Origin: Dactylorhiza incarnata
Taxonomy: Eukaryota > Streptophyta > Magnoliopsida > Asparagales > Orchidaceae
Direction: 5' to 3'
NCBI GenBank assembly: GCA_033032865.1
Contig: JAWHQI010000019.1
Span: 10,024,001 to 10,088,000 of the forward strand
Length of the DNA: 64,000 nucleotides
Shown: piece after piece, positions 5,501 to 45,688 of the stretch
How positions within the stretch are numbered: position 1 is the stretch's first letter
Layout: each line of letters begins with the position of its first letter
Notes under the pieces: model-generated
The model's input: only the letters and a program-made list of their open reading frames with translations
Told to the model about the DNA's origin: nothing
Databases searched by the model: none
Position numbers and translations under genes: made by a program

Positions 5501-5709
5501 TTTCAATCCCTCCACATAAGCCACCTTTGTGATTGTAACTAACCCATTTGAGATGCTGCCATAGCCCCTGGTCACTCCATTTTCTGAACCTCCAAAAATC
5601 ACTATTGGTCCATTCTCCATAGGGGTGAACTCTTTCAAGTACCTTCTGACTCCAGTCATGTGCCATGAGCAGCCACTGTCCAAATACCAAATTGGAGATT
5701 GGTTGGCAT
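2561..5709 (-). pseudogene. C1 pol: protease start, integrase, reverse transcriptase, RNase H (broken)
   Basis: Reading leftward, the protease motif WYLDSGCSWHMTG (near 5660) is followed by the integrase His/Cys zinc site (WHKRLAH...CQAC, 5160-5290), then the core with DLFGP (about 5070) and SDHGT (about 4900). A stop (TAA at 4892-4894) follows immediately, then the frame resumes. At the catalytic-Glu segment the usual QQNG is QQNW (about 4810), a substitution beside the active site. RT contains [10 protein letters not shown] and YVDDIIFGS (about 3490). RNase H has TAESEYISA (about 2880) and ends after DIFTKPL. In-frame stops lie at 4892, 3704 and 2831; otherwise one frame runs through. This is a recognisable but dead pol with no frameshift seen. 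Confidence 0.9.
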
Positions 5710-7199
5710 TGACGCGCTATTTCCACACCGCTAGTTAGCGGGCACGAAATGCGGTACGACGGCAGTGCACCGATCGTTGTCAAGCAATAAAAGTAGGGAG
5801 TAGCTCCCCGAATATCGTTCTCAAAGAACCGCAAGTTGTGTAGTACAATTTGCCTGTTAGGAGATTAATTATGAGGGTTTCTAAGTTAAACAAAAATAGG
5901 GGGATTTGGTTTTATAGAACAGGAATGAGAAAACTAAACAAACTATGCGGGTCGCAATCACCGCGTCGCTTGGTGGATGGATTTAGTGCAGGCCGCGATT
6001 TCGTGCTTCGCTTAGAGGATGGCCGGTGAGCAAATGGATGAGGTGAGTGCAAATGCGAGAGTTGAGGGTCGAAGGCACCTCTTCGTTATCGCTTCCAGCT
6101 TTTGCTAGAGCGAGTGCTAGAACGTCTGTGTGTGTGTAAGTGGAGCGGGGGCGGAGCGCATTACAACACAGCATTAAGTAAAGAACAAGATCATAAACAA
6201 ACTCCCATTCATAGACAAATAGAGGTTCACTTAGTTCATTACAACTATGAAGAGTACATATCAAAAAAAAGGAGAAGGGGTAGAAGGAACCACGAGATGA
6301 GAAGCCTCGCCATGGATCTTGTTCGGAATGGGGGGTCATCACGCCTCCTCCGAGCTCAGTCCTTGGTTGCTTCCGGGGCTTAGAGGCTGTCACTACCTCC
6401 AACCGTTGCCCGTCTTCTTCTCAGAGCTGGGTCACTTCTGCTTCGCCCAATGGAGATGTCCTCCTCATGGAATGCTGGCTGTAGATGGAGGAGAATGCTT
6501 CCGGGATCCTAGATGGACCTTAGGATCAATGGATGAAGCCTTCCTAAAGGGGGGAATGGATGGGAGGAACTTGGAGAGGTGAAACGGCGGACTGGCGCGG
6601 AGAAATCGCGCCCCAAAACAGTGCTCAATGCCCTAATTTCGCGGAGCAGCGGTTTAAATAAGGAGCAGAATAAACACTGCGCACGATCAGTGGCGCACGA
6701 CCAATGGTCGTGCGCGAAGGAATGCCTGTGAACGTGCGCAGTCAACCTGTAGCAAAGAAAAAGATGGCAAATAACGCACGGTCAGGGGCGCACGACCAGT
6801 GGTCGTGCGCGAAGGAATCCTCTGATCGTGCGCAGTCGCTCTGTCTGGGAAGGGAATTGATGCACGACCACTGGTCGTGCGCCTGATCGTGCGCGAAGGA
6901 ATGCGCACGATCAGAGGCTTTCTAGGCCAAAAATTGCCCCGCACCATCCCGAACGTTCACGCGATCCCAGGACCTGCGGGAAAAATACATATGACCCCGA
7001 TCCGTGCACACCACCAGATCCATAACACAGGCATACAGTGATATATAAGAAAAACATGCCACAAAGGGGGAAGGATTGCACAAGAGGCGCAGATACGCCG
7101 TGATATCAATATAAGCATATATGAACAGCAATTGAAGTGCAATGACACTAAAACAAACCCAGATGAGGTCGGAAATCACTGTATAAACCAGACTCATCA
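5710..7199 (-). repeat. F 3' LTR (1490 bp)
   Basis: The plus-strand ends are tgacgcgct and gactcatca. It matches 21543-23033 over its whole length. It contains the TATA-like sequence TATTTAAA (minus strand, 6653-6660) and, just upstream in the element's sense, an array of GCACGACC palindromes. Its U5 end resembles those of D and B. Confidence 0.9.
6685..6915. repeat. GCACGACC-type palindrome array in F 3' LTR
   Basis: Several inverted repeats lie here, among them GCACGACCAGTGGTCGTGC at 6790-6808 and GCACGACCACTGGTCGTGC at 6862-6880, with half-sites such as gatcgtgcgc between them. The block ends about 25 bp from the TATA-like box at 6653-6660. The 5' LTR carries the same array at 22510-22750. 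Confidence 0.85.
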
Positions 7200-7215: not shown

Positions 7216-7534
7216 TGTTTGCGCGACCCGAGCAAACAAATCCGGCGGAGCGAGAAAAGACATAGCTGGGTTAGAAATTGCAAGGACGGAGTAATATGCG
7301 AAGTCTCATACACATGTGCATAGAAATCTAGTTGATAGTGCATTATTTATAGTTATTTTTATATAGTATTTTAGTAGTAATTAATTAGTTTTTATATAAT
7401 TTTAGTTTAATATATATCTAATTCGCTTTATTTTGTGTTTTCAGGTAATCTGGGGCTGCTAATAGCAAATTCAAGCTCACAGCCATGTTCAGGGGAAAGA
7501 ATGGAACAAGTCTGCAAAATTCTTCAGTACACGC

Positions 7535-8030
7535 CCTCGGTCACGGCCATGACCAAGGGCGTGACTTCAAGTCACGGCCATGACTCAACCCAGCCATCTT
7601 CTAGCTGCCAGAACACGCCGTCACATCATTTCCAGCCTACACGCCCCAGGTCACGGGCGTGACTCTATGTCACGGCCATGACCTAGGGGGTGACCCTTCC
7701 CGCAAATGCCAGAATAACTCCAGATCGCGCTGTTTCAAGATTTGGTCAAGTCACGCCCTCTGTCACGGGCGTGACTCCATGTCACGGCCATGACCTAGGG
7801 GGTGACCCTTCCCGCAACTGCCAGAATAACTCCAGATCGCGCCGTTTCCCGCCGTTTCCAGATTCGGTCAAGTCACGCCCTAGGTCACGGGGGTGACCGA
7901 GGCCGTGACCCGTCGAGATGATTAATTTTGGCGGTTTTTCTTCCCCAACGTTCCCGGGCTTTCAAGACGCAATTACGCAGCTTACACGCCCTTGGTCACG
8001 GGCGTGACCAAGGGCGTGACTCACCAATTT
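7535..8030. repeat. GTCACG-N2-CGTGAC palindrome array in A1
   Basis: At least a dozen inverted repeats of the type GTCACGGGCGTGAC or GTCACGGCCATGAC recur, many inside a longer frame acacgcc-ctnggtcacgg. The last, near 7994-8018, lies about 20 bp before the TATA box. A2 has the same array at about 11720-12325 and A3 a diverged one at 14205-14690. Confidence 0.9.
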
Positions 8031-8034
8031 TCTG

Positions 8035-8044
8035 CCTATAAAAG
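8035..8044 (+). promoter_or_regulatory. TATA box of LTR A1
   Basis: cctataaaag follows the palindrome array directly. The matching box in A2 is at 12334-12343, and A3 has agctataaaa on the minus strand (14185-14194). Transcription start would be about 30 bp further on, so the array occupies the proximal promoter. Confidence 0.65.
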
Positions 8045-8945
8045 CCAGCTGCTGCCAAAGTGATGGGAATCCGATCCTAGCTTAGATTGGGTCATTTTTA
8101 TATTAGTTTTTTCAGCATTTTCTTATTGTATTTTCTTTATGCAGATTTACTTTATGTCTTGCAAATTTCAATTCATAGTTTAGATTTCCAATTCCTGCAA
8201 TTGTAATTCTCTTTACTTAGTTATAAAAATGTTTCTCTTTTCAAATATGTTTAGCTGAATTTATAGCATTTGATCGGATGAATTCTTAAGCTTTTCTTAT
8301 TTTGTAATCTCTCATTGTCGTAGCTTTAGTTTAAGAATTATTACGATCCACTTTTGATTTTTCTCGATTGATCTCATATTGCCGGTATATGAATATCAAT
8401 TCTTGATCCATTTTCTAGTGATCGAGAGATCCATGAATTTGTGTAGATCATTCATTAGTGGAAAGAGTTGCATGCATTCCTCGAGAGAGGGTGACACAAA
8501 TCTTTCGGATTGGAGTCAAATCCAATAGTGGGGCTCACCGCATAAAGCAAGCTTAGGGGTTTCGACTGGCCGAGGGGTCTTAATCGATCAACCTAAGGTT
8601 AGGTGGTAGTTCTCTCGAGAGAGGCTCTACCATATTTTGGGAACCTCCACGGTCGAATTATTCTATCGCTTTTGGTTATGAATTTAGATTTTACAATTTA
8701 TTTAACTCAAGAAGGATTTCCGATCAAATGCTCTTTTTTCTTTTCTCTTTTATTATTCTAAAAATCTTCTTAAATCTAGATAAAATAATATTAATTTGCG
8801 TGAGTAGAAGTAATCAACAACCCCGTGGAATACGACACTTGATATTTATTTCTAAATATCCTATACTATGAATGATAGGTGCTCTTGCCTATAGTTCGTA
8901 GAATTTGGAGAAATTTTATATCCTAAGTTTTACGTATCAAGTTTT

Positions 8946-8963
8946 TGGCGCCGTTGCCGGGGA
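8946..8963 (+). promoter_or_regulatory. Primer-binding site of A (tRNA-Asp)
   Basis: TGGCGCCGTTGCCGGGGA is an 18-nt complement to the 3' end of plant tRNA-Asp, seven bases after LTR A1. The same PBS serves F; B and D have one-base variants. This type is known from Athila-lineage elements. Confidence 0.9.
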
Positions 8964-9100
8964 CATATTTTTGTTGATATTTTGAAAGCGTGAATTTTAT
9001 TACTTTTATCAATCTCTTTCTCCGCCCCCATTTCTCTTTTTGATTTATTTTCAAATTTCATTCTATTAAGTGACGGTTGTTCAATTTTCTTTCTTCAAAA

Positions 9101-10120
9101 ATGTTATCTCAATTGGCCGCCAAAGTTGCCGAGCTTCAAAATAAAGTCAATCTTTTGGAAGCTGCACGAAAGCGCCAAGTTAATTGTAATTTTTGTGGAG
9201 CACCGCATCGAAGTGAGGATTGTTATATTAATTTTTACTCTCAAAATTTTTCTTATGGAAATAATTTTGAGTTTATTTATGAAAATAATTATTCAAACTT
9301 TGATGAAAATAATTCATCTAGTTTTCATGCGAATGATTTTTTCGATTCTAATAATATTTCTTCTTGCTCCGATATTAATTATTCATGGTGGCAAGATCAC
9401 CCGGATAGTTTTCGGTGCGATGAAGGAAATTCAGTCAATCAAGATTTTCATTCCTCCTCTTTTACCCCACAAAATTCTTTTTCTTCTACTCTTGGGTATT
9501 CTTCAGATTCTATTTATCAAAATTTAAATATTTATACCCAAGCTCAAGAAGAACTTCTTTACCACGAATTTAAAAGAGTCATGGAGACACCGGACGAAAT
9601 TGATGAAGAACATGTTTCTTCACCTCCTCCGCCCGAATCTCCTCCTATTTTTCATGAATTTTCTCTCTCGCCAATTATTCACTTTAAAAGTGAAATTCAT
9701 GAAAATATTGTGTCCCATGAATTTAGTCCACTTGGAATTTCAAATAAATTTTTGGATACGAATTTTATTTTTGAAAATGAACAACCAGAGCTTAATCATG
9801 TGTTTTCACAAGAAACTCCTCCTTGTGAAATATTTTCTGACTCGCTTAATTTTGATTCTTTTTCTTCTAACGATTTTCATGTAGAGGATGAGCCGGTGCA
9901 ACCAAACGTCTTCACCGATCCATTTTCCGCTCATCTCCAGCAATCCAAATTACCTAAGGTATGTATAGGTAATTTGGATTCACAATTTCGCGCTAACGGA
10001 AAACAAAAGAATCAGGATTATAGCGGAGGAGTCGTCGGGCAACAGTTTTCGGCATTTTTACCTCAGCGTGAATTAAGGGAGTTGCCTGTGCATTTTCAAT
10101 TTGAATATCCTTTTAGCTAA
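9101..10120 (+). CDS. Zinc-knuckle gag-like protein of A (339 aa)
   Basis: This is the only sizeable ORF of A. I start at the ATG at 9101; the open frame extends 24 bases further up but without ATG. Residues 1-25 form a short heptad-like helix (LAAKVAELQNKVNLLEAA). A zinc knuckle CNFCGAPHRSEDC (CX2CX4HX4C) follows at about residues 29-42. The rest is rich in Asn, Ser, Phe and acidic residues, with repeated short motifs such as HEFSP, and no enzyme motif. Athila gag proteins carry a comparable knuckle, so a truncated gag is the likeliest origin. It may bind element RNA; function is unproven. The ORF is intact and AT-rich. Confidence 0.7.
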   Translation: MLSQLAAKVAELQNKVNLLEAARKRQVNCNFCGAPHRSEDCYINFYSQNFSYGNNFEFIYENNYSNFDENNSSSFHANDFFDSNNISSCSDINYSWWQDHPDSFRCDEGNSVNQDFHSSSFTPQNSFSSTLGYSSDSIYQNLNIYTQAQEELLYHEFKRVMETPDEIDEEHVSSPPPPESPPIFHEFSLSPIIHFKSEIHENIVSHEFSPLGISNKFLDTNFIFENEQPELNHVFSQETPPCEIFSDSLNFDSFSSNDFHVEDEPVQPNVFTDPFSAHLQQSKLPKVCIGNLDSQFRANGKQKNQDYSGGVVGQQFSAFLPQRELRELPVHFQFEYPFS

Positions 10121-11521
10121 CCCTTAACGTCTAGCTAAAAGACGTTAAACAAAGCGCTCTTGGGAGGCACCCCTTGCTTATCTTTATATTTTTGCTATTT
10201 TTCTTTTATTTTATGCATTTTCTTTTCCTGTTTGGCCTTTTCATTCTTATTTATAAACATTGGAGACAATGTTTATCTTTAAGTATGGGGGGGTGTTCTC
10301 TAATGTTTATTTTTATAAAAAAAAAAATTTGAAAACATGTTAAAAATCATAAAAAAATTGTTTCTTTGTTTTCTGTTGCAATTTTGATTTAAAAATATGA
10401 AAAATACAAAAAAATTTGTTTTATTTTAAAATGTTTAAAAAACTTATAAAAAAAACTATTTTTCCAATAAGATAAATTTTGTAATATTAAAATTCTCCAA
10501 ACTTTATTTATGCAAAATTAATTTTAATTATGAGTTGTCTTTATAGGTTTTTTTTAAGAGTTTTCTTTTTATGAATTTTTAAATCATATATTTCTCTTCA
10601 AAATATGTTAGATTTAATTTTTAGATGAATTTGATTTAATGAGTTTTTCATTATTTTGATTTGTTTAGAATATTTCTTAGTTTTACTTTCTCTCTTTAAA
10701 ATATCATAATTCAATTTTGTAGTAATTGTGTTAAATATCTTTAGATTTTACTTATATTAACTTGAACTCATAGTTTCTTATAGATTGCTCAATTTATTTT
10801 CTATGCTCTTAAAATATTTCTTTGGAATTTTTGTAGCCTTTAAACCCTAGCCCTTCCCCTACCTTTTTGTTTAACCCTTTTATTTGGCATATAAAAAAAT
10901 ATTTGAAAAGATCATATGTCATGGAAATGAGAGGATAAAATTCATCATTCCTAAACATATGCACCCAAATTAGTAAACGATTATATGGCATGGAGTTGAG
11001 AGGATAAAATTCATCACTCCTAAACATATACATTTGGGATATAAAAAAAAAGAAATTAAAAAAAGATGGAAATGAGAGGATAAAATTCATCATTTTCTAT
11101 ATGCAAAGTAACTTCTTCAATGCCAGCTTTACCCCAATTAGCCAAGTTTATTTGCTTATCCTAAGATATTTTTGAGAGAGCATAGTTAATATTTTGTAGT
11201 TTTCTAAAAGTTTCTAATGATGTTTAAAATTTCTATAATTTTAATCTTGGTTATTTTACTTAATTCAATGCAATTTTGTTTATGAAGATTTAGTTAGAGA
11301 ATTTTGAAACTAATATTTATTCTACTCATCTCAATTTATGAATTATAAATTATTTCTTATAAATCTGAATTTTAATTTCTTAACTTATTTTGACATGAGT
11401 TTTATAAGATTTGGAGTACATAATTAGAAGTAAATCTTTTTGGAAATGTCCTATAAATTCATCTCGTACTTATAAATTAGTTTTTGCTCTGGAATAGCAA
11501 AAGCTTAAGTGTGGGGGTATT
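10121..11521 (+). other. A 3' noncoding region and PPT
   Basis: There is no credible gene here; it is AT-rich. At 10138-10174 it carries gacgttaaacaaag followed by cttgggaggca, a block also found after the D ORF and after F pol. Three copies of GAGAGGATAAAATTCATCA begin near 10929, 10998 and 11074. Phrases near 10270-10290 (tatggggggg) and 11501-11521 (cttaagtgtgggggtatt) are purine-rich; the second abuts LTR A2 and is the likely PPT. Confidence 0.75.
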
Positions 11522-13225
11522 TGATAGTGCATTATTTATAGTTATTTTTATATAGTATTTTAGTAGTAATTAATTAGTTTTTATATAATTTTAGTTTAAT
11601 ATATATCTAATTCGCTTTATTTTGTGTTTTCAGGTAATCTGGGGCTGCTAATAGCAAATTCAAGCTCACAGCCATGTTCAGGGGAAAGAATGAAACAAGT
11701 CTGCAAAATTCTTCAGTACACGCCCTCGGTCACGGCCATGACCAAGGGCGTGACTTCAAGTCACGGCCATGACTCAACCCAGCCATCTTACATCTGCCAG
11801 ATCATGCCGCCAGCCCAATTTAGTATTACACGCCCTCGGTCACGGCCATGACCAAGGGCGTGACATCAAGTCACGGCCATGACTCAACCCAGCCATCTTC
11901 TAGCTGCCAGAACACGCCGTCACATCATTTCCAGCCTACACGCCCCAGGTCACGGGCGTGACTCTATGTCACGGCCATGACCTAGGGGGTGACCCTTCCC
12001 GCAAATGCCAGAATAACTCCAGATCGCGCTGTTTCAAGATTTGGTCAAGTCACGCCCTCTGTCACGGGCGTGACTCCATGTCACGGCCATGACCTAGGGG
12101 GTGACCCTTCCCGCAACTGCCAGAATAACTCCAGATCGCGCCGTTTCCCGCCGTTTCCAGATTCGGTCAAGTCACGCCCTAGGTCACGGGGGTGACCGAG
12201 GCCGTGACCCGTCGAGATGATTAATTTTGGCGGTTTTTCTTCCCCAACGTTCCCGGGCTTTCAAGACGCAATTACGCAGCTTACACGCCCTTGGTCACGG
12301 GCGTGACCAAGGGCGTGACTCACCAATTTTCTGCCTATAAAAGCCAGCTGCTGCCAAAGTGATGGGAATCCAATCCTAGCTTAGATTGGGTCATTTTTAT
12401 ATTAGTTTTTTCAGCATTTTCTTATTGTATTTTCTTTATGCAGATTTACTTTATGTCTTGCAAATTTCAATTCATAGTTTAGATTTCCAATTCCTGCAAT
12501 TGTAATTCTCTTTACTTAGTTATAAAAATGTTTCTCTTTTCAAATATGTTTAGCTGAATTTATAGCATTTGATCGGATGAATTCTTAAGCTTTTCTTATT
12601 TTGTAATCTCTCATTGTCGTAGCTTTAGTTTAAGAATTATTACGATCCACTTTTGATTTTTCTCGATTGATCTCATATTGCCGGTATATGAATATCAATT
12701 CTTGATCCATTTTCTAGTGATCGAGAGATCCATGAATTTGTGTAGATCATTCATTAGTGGAAAGAGTTGCATGCATTCCTCGAGAGAGGGTGACACAAAT
12801 CTTTCGGATTGGAGTCAAATCCAATAGTGGGGCTCACCGCATAAAGCAAGCTTAGGGGTTTCGACTGGCCGAGGGGTCTTAATCGATCAACCTAAGGTTA
12901 GGTGGTAGTTCTCTCGAGAGAGGCTCTACCATATTTTGGGAACCTCCACGGTCGAATTATTCTATCGCTTTTGGTTATGAATTTAGATTTTACAATTTAT
13001 TTAACTCAAGAAGGATTTCCGATCAAATGCTCTTTTTTCTTTTCTCTTTTATTATTCTAAAAATCTTCTTAAATCTAGATAAAATAATATTAATTTGCGT
13101 GAGTAGAAGTAATCAACAACCCCGTGGAATACGACACTTGATATTTATTTCTAAATATCCTATACTATGAATGATAGGTGCTCTTGCCTATAATTCGTAG
13201 AATTTGGAGAAATTTTATCTCATCA
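11522..13225 (+). repeat. LTR A2 (1704 bp) with altered U5 end
   Basis: It matches A1 but has 110 extra bases (11790-11899), an additional unit of the palindrome array. Its last bases also differ: after gagaaattttat it reads ctcatca, whereas A1 has a 20-base end finishing cgtatca. The terminal phrase tttatctcatca is that of A3. Length arithmetic (1607+110-13) shows no other net length change. Confidence 0.9.
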
Positions 13226-13265
13226 AGTTTTATCCCCGGCAACGGCGCCAAAAACTTGATGAGAT
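13217..13265. repeat. Inverted A2/A3 junction with back-to-back PBS
   Basis: The arms atctcatcaagttt (13217-13230) and aaacttgatgagat (13252-13265) are exact inverted copies. The spacer holds the complement of the 18-nt tRNA-Asp PBS (13233-13250), reading toward A3. In the A3 sense the order is LTR end, agtttt, complete 18-nt PBS, then a fold back into inverted LTR A2. The break falls right at the last PBS base. Confidence 0.9.
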
Positions 13266-14874
13266 AAATTCGCGCTGCGCAAAATTAAAATATTATCCAC
13301 GTATAATTCGATAAGGCAAGTGTACCTATCGCTTTATAGTATAGGATTTAGAAAATCAAGTGTCGTATTTTTCCGGGCTTGTTGAGTACTTCTACTCACA
13401 AAGAAGAGCTATTATTTTATCGATCAAAAGTTGGGTTTGTTTTGGAAAAACGATTTGGAGAAAATTAACTACGAAGAAAGATTATGATTAAAAGGATTAG
13501 CACTTGGTCTTGAATCCCTTTGGAATAAAATTTAATTTTATAAAAGATGAAACCGCAAACTCTTATTGAAATATATTCGACCGTGGAGGTTCCCAAAATA
13601 TGGTAGAGCCTCTCTCGAGAGAACTACCACCTAACCTTAGGTTGATCGATTAAGACCCCTCGGCCAGTCGAAACCCCCTGAGCTTGCTTTAAGCGGTGAA
13701 CCCCACTATTGGATTTGACTCCAATCCGGAAGATTTGCGTCACCCTCTCTCGAGGAATGCATACAACTCTTTTTATCTTTGAGTGATCTCCTCGTTCGCA
13801 TGGATCTCTCGATCACTAGCAAACGAATCTTAGATTGAAAGTCATATTCCGGACATATGAAATCAAAACGAAATAATTCAAAGATAAATCGAAGATAAAC
13901 AATACGAGAGTTTGCTAATTAGAAAAATTCAAAACATATTTTATTTCATTCCAAAGTTCATCATGACCAAGTGCTAAAGGAAATTTAGCTACTCATCATG
14001 ATGGAGGAAACACATATGATAAGAGAGAAGTACATGATTTAAAAAAAACTAGAATACTTGAAATGAAATTGCAATAATAAAAGCTTTCAACTTGAAGAAA
14101 AACTAGCTAGAACAACGATAATAGTAGACTAAAGCTGTAAGTAAACTCCAAAATCGAACCCCTGAACTTCTGGAGAATGCTGCCTTTTATAGCTGAAAAA
14201 TCGGGGAGTCACGCCCTTGGTCACGCCCGTGACCAAGGGCGTGTAAGCTGCGTAATTGCTGTCATGAAAGCCCGGGACGTTGGGGAAGAGAAACCGGCAG
14301 AAATCAATTGCATGGCGGGTCACGGCCTCGGTCACGCCCGTGACAGAGGGCGTGTCTTGAACGGGTCAGGAAACGGCGGGAAACGCCGCGAACAGGAGCT
14401 AATCTGGCGGTTGCAGAAGAGTCACGGCCTTAATCACGCCCGTGACCAAGGGCGTGTAAGCTAGAAACGGCGGGAATTGATTGCTGGCTGAATTGAATGC
14501 ATTCCGGGCGTGTCACGCCCGTGACACTTTAGGTCACGCCCTCTGTCACGCCCGTGACAGAGGGCGTGTAATTTTAATCTGACGTGGCGGCTGACTTTTC
14601 AACTGGAATGCGCGGGGCTGGATCACGGCCGTGACAAAATGTCACGCCCTAGGTCACGCCCGTGACCGAGGGCGTGTACTTTGCGATTTTGGCCGAAATG
14701 CTCCAAATAATCTCCTGATTAGTCTTATGAGCTTTAAATTGCTATTGGCAGCCCAAATTATCTGAAATTATAAAAAAGAAGATAAATTAGTGATAAATTA
14801 ACTAAAACTAAATTAAATTAAATTAATTATTAATAAAATATTATGTGAAAATAACAATAAATATAGCATTATCA
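13257..14874 (-). repeat. LTR A3, inverted, diverged subfamily (1618 bp)
   Basis: In the minus sense it opens TGATAATGC, carries an array of GTCACG...CGTGAC palindromes (14205-14690) and a TATA box, and closes ctcatca before the PBS. Layout and motifs match A1/A2, but most of the sequence differs, so it derives from another subfamily. It is not followed by an internal region of its own. Confidence 0.85.
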
Positions 14875-14879
14875 CTAGT

Positions 14880-21536: not shown

Positions 21537-21542
21537 AAAACT

Positions 21543-23033
21543 TGACGCGTTATTTCCACACCGCTAATTAGCGGGCACGAAATGCGGTACGACGGCAGTG
21601 CACCGGTCGTTGTCAAGCAATAAAAGTAGGGAGTAGCTCCCCGAATATCGTTCTCAAAGCACCGCAAGTTGGGTAGTACGATTTGCCTGTTAGGAGATTA
21701 ATTATGAGGGTTTCTAAGTTAAACAAAAACAGGGGGATTTTGATTGGTTTTATAGAATAGGAATGAGAAAACTAAACAAACTATGCGGGTCGGAATCACC
21801 GCGTCGCTTGGTGGATGGATTTAGTGCAGGCCGCGATGTCGTGCTTCGCTTAGCGGATGGCCGGTGAGCAAATGGATGAGGTGAGTGCAAATGTGAGAGT
21901 TGAGGGTCGAAGGCACCTCTTCGCTATCGCTTCCAGCTTTTGCTAGAGCGAGTGCTAGAACGTGTGTGTGTAAGTGGAGTGGGGGCGGAGCGCATCACAA
22001 CACAGCATCAAGTAAAGAACAAGATCATAAACAAACTCCCATTCATAGACAAATAGAGGTTCACTTAGTTCATTACAACTATGAAGAGTACATATCAAAA
22101 AAAAGGAGAAGGGGTAGAAGGAACCACGAGATGAGAAGCCTCGCCGTGGATCTTGGTCGGAATGGGGGGTCGTCACGCCTACTCCGAGCTCAGTCCTTGG
22201 TTTCTTCCGGGGCTTAGAGGCTGTCACTACCTCCAACTGTTGCCCGTCTTCTTCTCAGAGCTGGGTCACTTCTGCTTCGCCCAATGGAGATGTCCTCCTC
22301 ATGGAATGCTGGTTGTAGATGGCGGAGAATGCTTCCGGGATCCTAGATGGACCTTAGGATCAATGGATGAAGCCTTCCCAAAGGGGGGAATGGATGGGAG
22401 GAACTTGGAGAGGTGAAACGGCGGACTGGCGCGGAGAAATCGCGCCCCAAAACAGTGCTCAATGCCCTAATTTCGCAGAGCAGCGGTTTAAATAAGGAGC
22501 AGAATAAACACTGCGCACGGTCAGTGGCGCACCACCAATGGTCGTGCGCGAAGGAATGCCTGTGATCGTGCGCAGTCAACCTGTAGCAAAGAAAAAGATT
22601 GCAAATAACGCATGGTTAGGGGCGCACGACCAGTGGTCGTGCGCGAAGGAATCCTCTGATCGTGCGCAGTCACTCTGTCTGGGAAGGGAATTAACGCACG
22701 ACCACTGGTCGTGCGCCTGATCGTGCGCGAAGGAATGCGCACGATCAGAGGCTTTCTAGGCCAAAAATTGCCCCGCACCATCCCGAACGTTCACGCGATC
22801 CCAGGACCTGCAGGAAAAATATATATGACCCTGATCCGTGCACACCACCGGATCCATAACACAGGCATACAGTGATATAAAAGAAAAACATGCCACAAAG
22901 GGGGAAGGATTGCACAATAGGCGCAGATACGCCGTGATATCAATATAAGCATATATGAACAGCAATTGAAGTGCAATGACACTAAAACAAACCCAGATGA
23001 GGCCGGAAATCACTATATAAACCAGACTCATCA
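21543..23033 (-). repeat. F 5' LTR (1491 bp)
   Basis: The partner of 5710-7199. On the minus strand the palindrome array (22510-22750) precedes TATTTAAA (22487-22494). The U5 end has the cactgccgtcgta phrase seen also in D. The outer end abuts ggcat, the right-hand target duplication. Confidence 0.9.
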
Positions 23034-42201: not shown

Positions 42202-43980
42202 TTACCTGTCCACTTTTCTTTTCATAGGCCTATAAGCTAGAACTGTATAAAATCCGAATAAGTCATGCTGGGATGACAATAACCCCATTAGTTATCTTAC
42301 TTTTATTGCATTTTTATTTTCCTAGTTAGAGTAGTTCGTTAATTTATGTTCAGTTTTAGCATTTCTGCTTCCTTTTGTTTTTGTGGAGCTCACCCCTGCA
42401 GGTACTCATTGCAAATTTTGAATGGCGGGTTTGCTTCAGATTTTCATGCATCTTCTGGTATGCTCACTTGCTGAGCATTGGGTAACTTCTCCCACAGCTT
42501 TCTATTTTAATTTTCAATGCTCTATCATTATGATGTATTGCGTAGATTAAGTCTGGGGGGGCGAGCCACATGTTGTTACCCGCTCACGTGCACCTTTTAT
42601 TTGCATACTAGAATAATTAATTGTGTTATGATGTTAATTTGCACCGCACACCACTACACCCACTCGAGCGTGCACTTAGCTGTTGGCACGTCTTGAGCTG
42701 AACTCATTTCTTTTTGTGTGATTTGGAAAATCAATGTGCTGGCTTAGGATTATGAGTAGGAGTAAAATGTTGACTTCGATAGTGCTCCTAGTCGAGTGCT
42801 CATGTCTCACATAGAAATTCGTGTAGATTCAATCTCTTTTTATGCTTTTAGTTTATATTTTTCTATTAGCGTAAATATTGTTTACTACACTCAAAAATTG
42901 GTGAATCTGGTGTGAATCAAACGGTAGCATAGGGATGTGTGTAGACGTTCGTTAGCCTCATATTGCCCGAGTCGGGAGAAAGGATTATCTTTCTCGGTGG
43001 CTAAGAACTTGCCCCAAGCGATTCTTGAAGCATGGGTATACAGTTAGTCAATTGCGTGAATGTGATATAGGCCATCATTTTGGCCCGGTTGAGCCTTTGT
43101 GCCATTCCTATCATCATTTCCTCGCTAGCCCAGTTATGCCTACCCCATTCTTTTGGTTCAGCTCCACTATTGTTCACCAAAGCCTAAACTCCAATCCTAG
43201 TCGCACACCCAAAATGCAAGCATTTTGTTTAAATTTTAAATTGGTGGTGTTGATTGTGGAAGTACAATGTGAAAATGTGGATGTGCATCTTTGAAAATTT
43301 GCTGAAATTGCTAAAGAAAGAAAAAGAAAAGAAGAAAAAGATTTGAAAAGAAAAAGAAGAATGAAAAGTTTAATTAAAAAAATCTGTTTGAGATTTATAT
43401 TTGGGAGTAGGCGGTGCACACACCCATGCGTCTAAGTCTAAGTCTGGGGGTGTGGTGCATCCGCGTGTTTTATGGCTACTTGGATAGTGTTATGCATTTG
43501 CTCATTTGGGTTTTTGTGTTCTAAGCCTTCATGTTTATATTTGTTTACCTCACCTAAACCCAAGCCTCATCTAAAACCTTAAGTCCTATTGATTCACGCA
43601 TTTGAGTCAAACCAGTGCCGTGGAGAGAGTGCGAACGGGCAAGCTTATGGTCACCGACATTGATGGATTTCAATGGAGGTTGTCTCGAGCCCCGATCTTT
43701 GGCAATGCTCGCCTCAGCGTTCAGTTTACTTTCTTCCTATGTACGACCTTATGATTCACCGTGATTCACTTTTTGAGTAAATGTAATATATAAATACGCC
43801 CCTAGAAAAGTATAAACTAATATGTACAATTAGAAATTTTGTCAACTGTATTTCTACACGCATGAGCATGCGACTTCGCATGATACTCCGCTTTACAATT
43901 TCTATGCCAGCTGTGTATTTTTCTCAGCCGCTTGAGGAATTCGTTTGCTCGGGACGCGCAAACAGGTAAGTCTGGGGGTG
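42202..43980 (+). other. B 3' noncoding region and PPT
   Basis: No credible gene. It includes the hairpin tctggtatgctcacttgctgagcat (arms ATGCTCA/TGAGCAT, 42451-42485), a long block shared with F and D (tttctcggtggc, cttgccccaagcga; 42900-43040), a purine-rich segment (43310-43375), a block with gacttcgcatgatactcc shared with F (about 43870-43900), and the PPT GGTAAGTCTGGGGGTG (43965-43980). Confidence 0.8.
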
Positions 43981-45688
43981 TGATAAGTCCTGATCATATA
44001 CACATATATGGACTCATCTGGGCCATTTTTCTAGTCTTTCCACTGCACTTTAGCCTTGTTTTGGCTCATATTTGTCATTCTATGCTAGGTGCACTTCTTG
44101 GCCTATTTTGGTGTGTTTTGATGTTTATTCTCTTTTGATAGCCTTATCGTATTGTTGAGTGCCACTTTCAGTAGCCTGATTAGCATTTTTGTAGGAACAG
44201 GAGTCGTTCAGGTGTTCCCGGTACAATTCTGTACAGGAATACTGCGCACGATCACTGGTTCTATTGCGCACGACCACTGGTTGTGCGCCACTGATCGTGC
44301 GCACTTAACCCCCATTTTATGAGTTCTGTCTCGACCAATGCGCACGACCACTTATGATAATGCGCACGACCACTGGTCGTGCGCCACTGGTCGTGCGAAC
44401 ATTTTATTTTATAAATTTCTTACATTGCAGGCTCCGCCCAGGCAGGCGCACGATCACAGGATTCCAGCGCGCACGACCACTGGTCATGCGCCAATGACCG
44501 TGAGCACTGTTTATTCCAGCGCCTATAAATATTCCTGCTCGCTATTTAGGTCAAAAGCTCCGCATTTCTTCCGCTCCAGTCCGCCGTTTTCTCGCTCCAG
44601 AGCCCCGATTTCGCCCCTCCATCGCCGCCCACCATCTGGAGGTGCTCTGGGCTTGTTCTTCACGCCAATCTTGAGCCGGAGCTTCCTCTCGGCCTCCTCC
44701 TTCATCCTAGAGCTTCAAGGAAGGTTTAACCGCCATCGCCATCAAGCAAGGGGAAGTTTGCAACCTCTACCGGATCGTGAGACGAAGAAGACGGGTTCAT
44801 TGGAGAGTCGTGACAGCTCTCTCTACCCCGGACGTAGTTGCGGACCGAGCTTGGACGCGGATTGACAACCCGGCGATTCCAACCGTGAATCTCTAACGAG
44901 CCTTCGGATTCGGTCGATTTCTTGCCTTGTCCTTCTCTTATTGATGTGTTTGTAGCTAGATCTCTCATGTATTGATGATGAACACTATGAATCGTGCTTG
45001 TAATCTTAATTTCATGTCTATGTGAATTTATATTTTGTTCATATGTGTACGAGGTGCGCCACCATCCATCCTCCATCCCGCCGTCACGTTCGTGTGCCGC
45101 CCTAGCAATTGCTAGTGGTGTGCTTGTCGACGAGGTGCTTGTGACCCTCATCCGTATGCCTACTCTTCCATCCGCCTAGCGAAGCGTGGCATAGCGACCC
45201 GTGTAATCCATTCCGACTCCGCCGGTGCGAACTATTCCATCCACTTGCCCACTCTTCCATCCGCCTAGCGAATCGTGGCATAGCGGCCCGTGTAATCCAT
45301 TCGCCCAACGAAGCAGTGCGCTGAAGGCCTGCATAGTTCGATTCCGTTTGCCTACTCGTCCATCCGCCCTTGCGACGCAGCGCGCTCAAGGCCTGTCTAG
45401 TCTCCATTCCGCCAAGCGAAGCATTGCATAACGGCATTGCATAGGAGTAGTTGTAGTTGTTTTCTTTTATTTTCCAAAAGCCAAATCAACTCTCCCGCAT
45501 TCCATCCGACTCAAGGACTTTGATCTCAAGTCCTTCCTCGAACGTTAACTCCACCTTATTGTGTTCCTTAAGAGATTCGATACTCGGGGATTACTCCTCG
45601 TTTTATATTACTTGAACGATCGGTACACTGCCGTTTCGTGTCGCAGTCGAGCTACCGCCTATAGCGGTGTGCGAGATTTGCGCCATCA
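43981..45688 (+). repeat. B 3' LTR (1708 bp)
   Basis: The exact length match of the 5' copy. It begins tgataagtcc, one base different from the 5' LTR, and ends gcgccatca before the gacct duplication. Confidence 0.92.

What the first reader, a model, noticed from the sequence alone, without database searches (positions are those of the whole stretch)
7333..14874. A single integrated retroelement with U3 ends at both termini and an inverted third LTR
The unit carries one target duplication (ctagt) around LTR-internal-LTR-inverted LTR. A normal element ends in U5 at the right; this one ends in the U3 of a diverged relative. The inverted part is exactly LTR plus the 18-nt tRNA-Asp PBS, which is what plus-strand strong-stop DNA would contain, and A2 has lost its own last bases in favour of the A3 end. 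I infer that a strong-stop DNA of a co-packaged relative folded back on itself (arms of 14 bases), then switched template into the A2 end at a short ttta(t) match, and that integrase used the two U3 ends. I know of no named class of LTR element built this way.
Basis: partly seen in the sequence, partly recalled or inferred. Interest (0 to 1): 0.9.

Follow-up and report, generated by a model that had tools for sequence, protein, structure and literature searches.

The report
Retrotransposon ending in inverted third LTR
A plant-type jumping element was inserted in one step with an extra, backwards copy of a relative's end piece attached exactly where the copying enzyme normally pauses on its tRNA primer, and similar joints elsewhere in the same genome suggest that this copying mistake recurs.

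Summary
7333-14874 is LTR (A1) - internal - LTR (A2) - inverted LTR (A3), flanked by one 5-bp duplication (CTAGT). A related repeat copy in the window carries the target uninterrupted. A3 is from another family and ends at the 18-nt tRNA-Asp PBS: 22 of 22 inspected A3-family contexts go on differently after the PBS. A2 has A3's last U5 bases instead of its own; 9 of 9 ordinary A elements have native ends and a 5-bp duplication.

New here: three further head-to-head joints in the same genome (sense LTR piece, PBS complement, inverted LTR), at L053, L056 and L067. L067 has its own duplication, GGGAG. Those three overlap the extended PBS complement by 4, 3 and 2 bases; the window's joint by 0-1.

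Best explanation: plus-strand strong-stop DNA missed its normal transfer, was fused tail-first to sense LTR sequence during reverse transcription, and integrase used its free U3 end. U3 at both ends is shown only in the window. New variant of a known kind.

The parts
7328..7332 (.). left target duplication CTAGT
7333..8939 (+). A1: complete left LTR (TGATAGTGC..TATCA), U3 outermost
8946..8963 (+). PBS, 18 nt complementary to the tRNA-Asp 3' end, after 6-nt spacer agtttt
   Evidence: tRNA identity rests on a recalled tRNA-Asp gene that ARAGORN calls Asp
8964..11521 (+). internal region with a 348-aa ORF (9074-10117), no Pfam match at E<=0.001; G-rich polypurine tract just before 11522
11522..13218 (+). 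A2: right LTR of the A element up to ..aattttat; its native last 20 bases are missing
13214..13218 (+). TTTAT shared by A2 and A3 U5 (switch site)
13219..13231 (+). A3-type U5 end and spacer (ctcatca agtttt), inverted copy of 13251-13263
13232..13232 (+). extra A; equals tRNA position 58 if the strong-stop DNA over-extended by one base, or an untemplated base
   Evidence: tRNA-Asp sequence recalled
13233..13250 (-). PBS of the A3 piece (18 nt), where similarity to ordinary A3-family elements ends
13251..14874 (-). A3: complete inverted LTR plus 6-nt spacer of another family, U3 terminus outermost
14875..14879 (.). right target duplication CTAGT
43650..44050 (-). related repeat copy holding the target without the insertion

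Best explanation
This is a single integration of an aberrant cDNA. In a particle holding transcripts of two related LTR families, plus-strand strong-stop DNA of the A3 relative (U3-R-U5-spacer plus the 18 tRNA-templated bases, perhaps one more copied from A58) did not make its normal transfer to the PBS of a minus strand. Its tRNA-copied 3' end was fused to sense-strand LTR sequence near the U5 end of element A. Either that end primed on, or folded back to, sense sequence, or the sense strand ran off its template at the tRNA border and jumped onto the free strong-stop 3' end. Copying to the 5' end of the strong-stop DNA gives a duplex with an exact U3 terminus, and integrase inserted it together with the ordinary U3 end of A1. 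Shown: the structure, one 5-bp duplication, the uninterrupted target in a related copy, the PBS boundary, native ends in ordinary relatives, and three similar joints at other loci. Inferred: co-packaging, the direction of copying, and the order of the U5 switch.
For: CTAGT on both sides and the uninterrupted target in a related copy. The A3 piece ends at the PBS border that defines strong-stop DNA (review passages of PMC13191261). 9 of 9 whole A elements have native U5 ends and 5-bp duplications. Three other loci join a sense LTR piece to the PBS complement and an inverted LTR: L053 and L056, L067. L053 arms have 0 substitutions and 1 gap over 1,468 identical positions. L067 has GGGAG on both sides and its inverted LTR ends in a U3 terminus. 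Overlaps with the A-extended PBS complement are 4, 3 and 2 bases at L053, L056 and L067; such matches occur at 0.5%, 1.8% and 9.3% of positions in A1. Each joint used as a query was the only place found with that joint among 40 scored candidates (window; L053; L067), so they look like one-off events.
Against: The window joint has 0-1 base of overlap and needs an extra switch from A2 to A3 U5. U3 at both termini is shown only in the window. L053's inverted arm stops at LTR position 217 and runs into other DNA. L056's right arm is recognisable for only about 170 bases, and its 3-base overlap assumes that copying slipped back after reaching the U5 end. L067 has a second rearrangement at its left end, so its outer ends are U5 and U3. 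The other loci were found with a query that already held the base A before the PBS complement, so their sharing of that A is biased. Ordinary contexts prevail: 42 of 42 PBS contexts tallied (20 A, the window's A1 included, and 22 A3) are normal, so the event is rare. No reads were available.
Confidence: 0.75

Rival explanations
1. The reader's version (a sub-case of the best explanation): A3 strong-stop DNA folded back on itself, self-primed, copied its own U5 end and then switched into A2 at TTTAT.
For: 13-base inverted arms (18 with TTTAT) around the PBS loop and the TTTAT switch site; L053 looks like mispriming with a GGAT/ATCC match.
Against: In the window the fold-back would have to start exactly at the spacer/PBS border with 0-1 matching bases, a border that end-to-end joining explains without coincidence.
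Confidence: 0.3
2. Two linear cDNA ends were joined by host end joining: the U5 end of element A and the PBS end of a double-stranded A3 LTR fragment, before integration.
For: The border is exactly the end of the spacer, plus one extra base. Host enzymes can handle retroviral DNA ends that integrase does not insert (PMC5041404 passages).
Against: Needs a double-stranded LTR-PBS fragment with a clean U3 end, which the standard pathway does not make, plus an A3-type U5 end on element A that 9 of 9 ordinary A elements lack.
Confidence: 0.2
3. Two separate insertions followed by deletion or gene conversion made the head-to-head unit after integration.
For: Nested and recombined LTR elements are common; L009 looks like one LTR inserted into another.
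Against: The outer flanks carry the same 5 bases (1 in 1,024 by chance) and align gaplessly at the join to a related uninterrupted copy. A3 would have to end by accident at its U3 terminus beside the duplication and at the PBS inside.
Confidence: 0.04
4. Assembly chimera at 13217-13265.
For: Inverted LTRs are hard to assemble and no reads could be checked.
Against: The joint lies in a 19.2-Mb contig; a chimera would not give matching duplications at the outer ends and a gapless join to a related copy.
Confidence: 0.03

Closest known systems
Template-switch complex LTR elements of grasses (Sabot and Schulman 2007, PMC1950507, whole text read)
   Same: Three LTRs, one 5-bp target duplication, a single reverse-transcription and integration event, co-packaged templates.
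   Different: There the third LTR lies between two internal regions and arises by an R-to-R switch; no inverted LTR is described. Here the third LTR is inverted, carries only the PBS, and comes from another family.
Three-LTR complex elements found by LTRtype in Arabidopsis (PMC5379124, passages read)
   Same: More than two LTRs in one unit.
   Different: Of the type LTR-internal-LTR-internal-LTR; the word 'inverted' does not occur in that text.
Asymmetric HIV-1 proviruses (PMC9278108, 12 of 19 passages shown)
   Same: Explained by misdirected transfers during reverse transcription, involving plus-strand strong-stop DNA; a figure legend also marks proviruses with genome inversions.
   Different: The asymmetric LTRs are deleted ones; in the passages shown I saw no added inverted LTR, and I did not see details of the inversions.
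Autointegration products (PMC2644782, passages read)
   Same: Inverted retroelement DNA made before chromosomal integration.
   Different: Described there as nonproductive deletion or inversion circles from integrase attack; a PBS-bounded joint is not expected (inference).
DIRS-type elements with inverted terminal repeats (recalled; only search listings of a Dictyostelium review that holds the term 'inverted LTR', PMC5633606)
   Same: Terminal repeats in opposite orientation.
   Different: DIRS elements are a replicating family without integrase duplications (recalled); this is an LTR element of ordinary type with a one-off added end.

Membership tests
LTR retrotransposon (tRNA-Asp-primed, Gypsy type by recall) | direct LTRs TG..CA, PBS after the left LTR, purine tract before the right LTR | tested here: met
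LTR retrotransposon (tRNA-Asp-primed, Gypsy type by recall) | own pol (reverse transcriptase, integrase) | tested here: not met
   among stop-to-stop ORFs of at least 120 aa only 177 and 348 aa lie in the internal region; the 348-aa one has 0 Pfam families at E<=0.001, the 177-aa one was not scanned: taken as non-autonomous
LTR retrotransposon (tRNA-Asp-primed, Gypsy type by recall) | U3 at left end, U5 at right end | tested here: not met
   right end is the U3 terminus of A3; 9 of 9 ordinary A elements end in U5
Integrase-mediated single insertion | 5-bp target duplication and no other change at the join | tested here: met
   (against a related copy, not the allele)
Template-switch complex element (Sabot and Schulman) | third LTR between two internal regions | tested here: not met
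   A3 inverted, no second internal region
Plus-strand strong-stop DNA product | U3-R-U5 plus just the tRNA-copied PBS | tested here: met
   one further base (13232) may be an over-extension
Plus-strand strong-stop DNA product | present as such an intermediate in particles | not testable with these tools
   needs biochemistry

The most novel reading that the evidence does not exclude
[quoted passage not shown] This yields LTR-PBS inverted ends that integrase accepts, including U3-to-U3 elements and hybrids of two families, so such joints could be counted genome-wide as fossils of one reverse-transcription error.
Probability: 0.5. Interest if true: 0.75.

Novelty: new variant of a known kind. 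Interest (0 to 1): 0.62.

Why it matters
It gives a natural, young example of integrase apparently accepting two U3 ends, and of strong-stop DNA from one family joined to the cDNA of another. That is genomic evidence for co-packaging of related elements and for what happens when plus-strand transfer fails. The PBS-complement joint is a simple searchable footprint, so the rate and breakpoints of this error can be measured in any large genome. Inverted LTR pairs are also candidate sources of hairpin transcripts (inference).

Tried and rejected
Rejected: an ordinary U5-to-U5 fusion without A3 sequence in A2, because 9 of 9 whole A elements have the A1-type right end. Rejected: a replicating U3-U3 family. 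Queries centred on three joints each found that joint once among 40 scored candidates: window (382 candidates), L053 (1,855) and L067 (1,430); these are capped searches, so this is a lower bound. The query also matched L053 over its whole length, at 80%, as a different joint. Looked at and set aside: L009 (inverted A3 LTRs 2.7 kb apart) fits one element inserted into another's LTR. L054, L055, L057-L061 and L064-L066 have no inverted LTR before the PBS complement, and L068-L069 match only the LTR part. In all, the loci of 16 of the 44 rows were read. Ten literature searches (open-access PMC library; four of the listings were cut short) listed no paper whose title or abstract start describes an inverted LTR-PBS end; that is not proof of absence. 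Not done: a pattern scan for all such joints, and a query with the L056 joint (neither was ever answered).

Full report
OBSERVATION. The window lies at G000:C1109:10024001-10088000 of an unnamed 3.27-Gb assembly; that it is a plant is my inference from its element types. CTAGT stands at 7328-7332 and 14875-14879. A1 (7333-8939) and A2 (from 11522) are direct LTRs; up to ..aatttta they differ by 3 substitutions, all G in A1 and A in A2, with 1,578 identical positions and 111 gap columns. A3 (13251-14874, inverted) is only about 72-75% like A1, so it is from a relative, not from the same element.

TARGET. The two flanks with one CTAGT align without a gap at the join to a related copy at 43650-44050 (-) in the same window. 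The aligned stretch has scattered mismatches and small gaps elsewhere, and the five bases themselves differ there in part, so this is a related copy, not the allele. A matching pair of 5 bases is expected by chance 1 time in 1,024.

BOUNDARIES OF A3. A search with 13150-13400 scored 40 of 3,083 candidates and gave 41 rows. One is the window itself, one a weak inverted match in the window, and 39 are A3-family places that match only from 13217 (24 places, 97%), 13222 (1) or 13233 (14, 100%) on. I read 22 of these 39 contexts: 22 of 22 share the LTR, spacer and PBS (one, L022, differs in the outermost PBS base) and then go into different internal DNA. In the 7 read of the 24 places that seem to match from 13217, the bases beyond the PBS are internal DNA, not the window's arm. 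The A3 piece therefore ends where plus-strand strong-stop DNA ends. A review says plus-strand synthesis stops after the 18-nt tRNA primer sequence because of tRNA modifications and that incomplete m1A58 gives over-extension (PMC13191261, passages). In the window one extra base, A at 13232, stands where tRNA position 58 would be. The tRNA sequence is recalled and was checked only by ARAGORN, which calls it tRNA-Asp. A single base has a 1-in-4 chance.

ORDINARY RELATIVES. 40 of 40 scored places (of 2,474 candidates; one is the window) carry the A1-type U5-PBS end at 99-100%. The query was A1's own end, so this shows that the end is common, not that no other exists. 9 of 9 A elements fetched whole have both LTRs, the native end TACGTATCA at the right-hand LTR and, as I read the printed flanks, a 5-bp duplication. 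A2's ending in ctcatca is thus foreign and of A3 type, and the switch lies in TTTAT.

RECURRENCE. A query with 13190-13260 gave 44 rows from 40 scored of 382 candidates; I read the loci of 16 rows. Four are head-to-head joints: the window, L053, L056 and L067. L053 (C1220) is an A-like element (about 86% to A1): a sense LTR cut in U5, the PBS complement, then an inverted LTR with 0 substitutions and 1 gap over 1,468 identical positions. Upstream are the purine tract and internal DNA, and a further sense U5 piece lies about 2.8 kb before that LTR (positions; not fetched). Its inverted arm stops at LTR position 217 in other DNA, so no duplication can be tested. L056 (C999) belongs to another family. 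Its arms are 92% alike over about 170 bases each, and the right one then stops at what looks like the start of another LTR. Its U5 and spacer are complete, followed by a repeated gcgta before the PBS complement. L067 (C2518) has the purine tract, the first 81 bases of U3, the PBS complement and an inverted LTR that ends in a U3 terminus beside GGGAG; GGGAG also stands at its left end. The middle of that inverted LTR was not fetched; the distance fits a full LTR. L067's left end is itself an inverted U5-R piece turning back near LTR positions 1217/1259, so its outer ends are U5 and U3.

MECHANISM. Overlaps of native sequence with the A-extended PBS complement are 4 (L053), 3 (L056, if copying slipped back), 2 (L067) and 0-1 (window) bases; in A1, 4, 3 and 2 bases match at 0.5%, 1.8% and 9.3% of positions. 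This favours use of the strong-stop 3' end as a mispriming end or as a jump target at L053 and perhaps L056; L067's overlap alone is unremarkable. In the window the joint instead falls exactly at the border between spacer and tRNA-copied bases, which suggests run-off and end-to-end jumping. I cannot tell the direction of copying from finished sequence. For L067, copying from strong-stop DNA onto plus-sense RNA and then back along minus strong-stop DNA would explain both ends (inference).

COMPARISON. The nearest published kind is the template-switch complex element (PMC1950507, whole text): one duplication and three LTRs, but with two internal regions and no inverted LTR. Three-LTR elements of Arabidopsis (PMC5379124, passages), asymmetric HIV-1 proviruses (PMC9278108, passages; its legend also marks proviral inversions), host-mediated aberrant ends (PMC5041404, passages) and autointegration circles (PMC2644782, passages) differ as listed. 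I found no description of an inverted LTR-PBS end in ten searches of an open library, which misses most subscription papers; older retroviral vector work on strand-transfer errors (recalled, not seen) is the likeliest place for a precedent.

LIMITS. No reads; the genome pattern scan never ran; searches score 40 candidates each, so counts are lower bounds; the recurrence query favours joints with A before the PBS complement; U3-to-U3 is shown once. The confidence figures are not a partition: the fold-back version is part of the best explanation.

Noticed in passing
L002-L022, base(s) just after the PBS: 22 A3-family contexts carry 8 different short sequences directly after the PBS (A family: 20 contexts, 2 variants), as if the tRNA-copied strong-stop end often gains or changes bases before transfer.
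   Followed up: partly
G000:C2795:11189231-11254001 (7 rows): Seven A-family U5-PBS places on one contig, three neighbouring pairs of them about 4.3 kb apart, which looks like tandem LTR-internal arrays.
   Followed up: no
L067, L070, L071, L072 (G000:C2518, about 34834523-34839600): Element with both end LTR pieces inverted relative to its internal region, inserted with duplication GGGAG in DNA that by eye looks like a Copia-type gag.
   Followed up: partly
L053:68-3042 (G000:C1220): Near-perfect LTR palindrome of about 2.97 kb around a PBS loop, arms without substitutions over 1,468 identical positions.
   Followed up: partly
7500-7900, 11690-12100, 14200-14690: LTRs of both families hold many GTCACG/CGTGAC palindromic units, and the number of ~110-nt units differs between A1 and A2.
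   Followed up: no
5709-7199 and 21542-23033: Repeat pair, 96.5% alike over about 1.5 kb, probably LTRs of a surrounding element; the left copy's alignment ends 133 bases before the A/A3 insertion.
   Followed up: no
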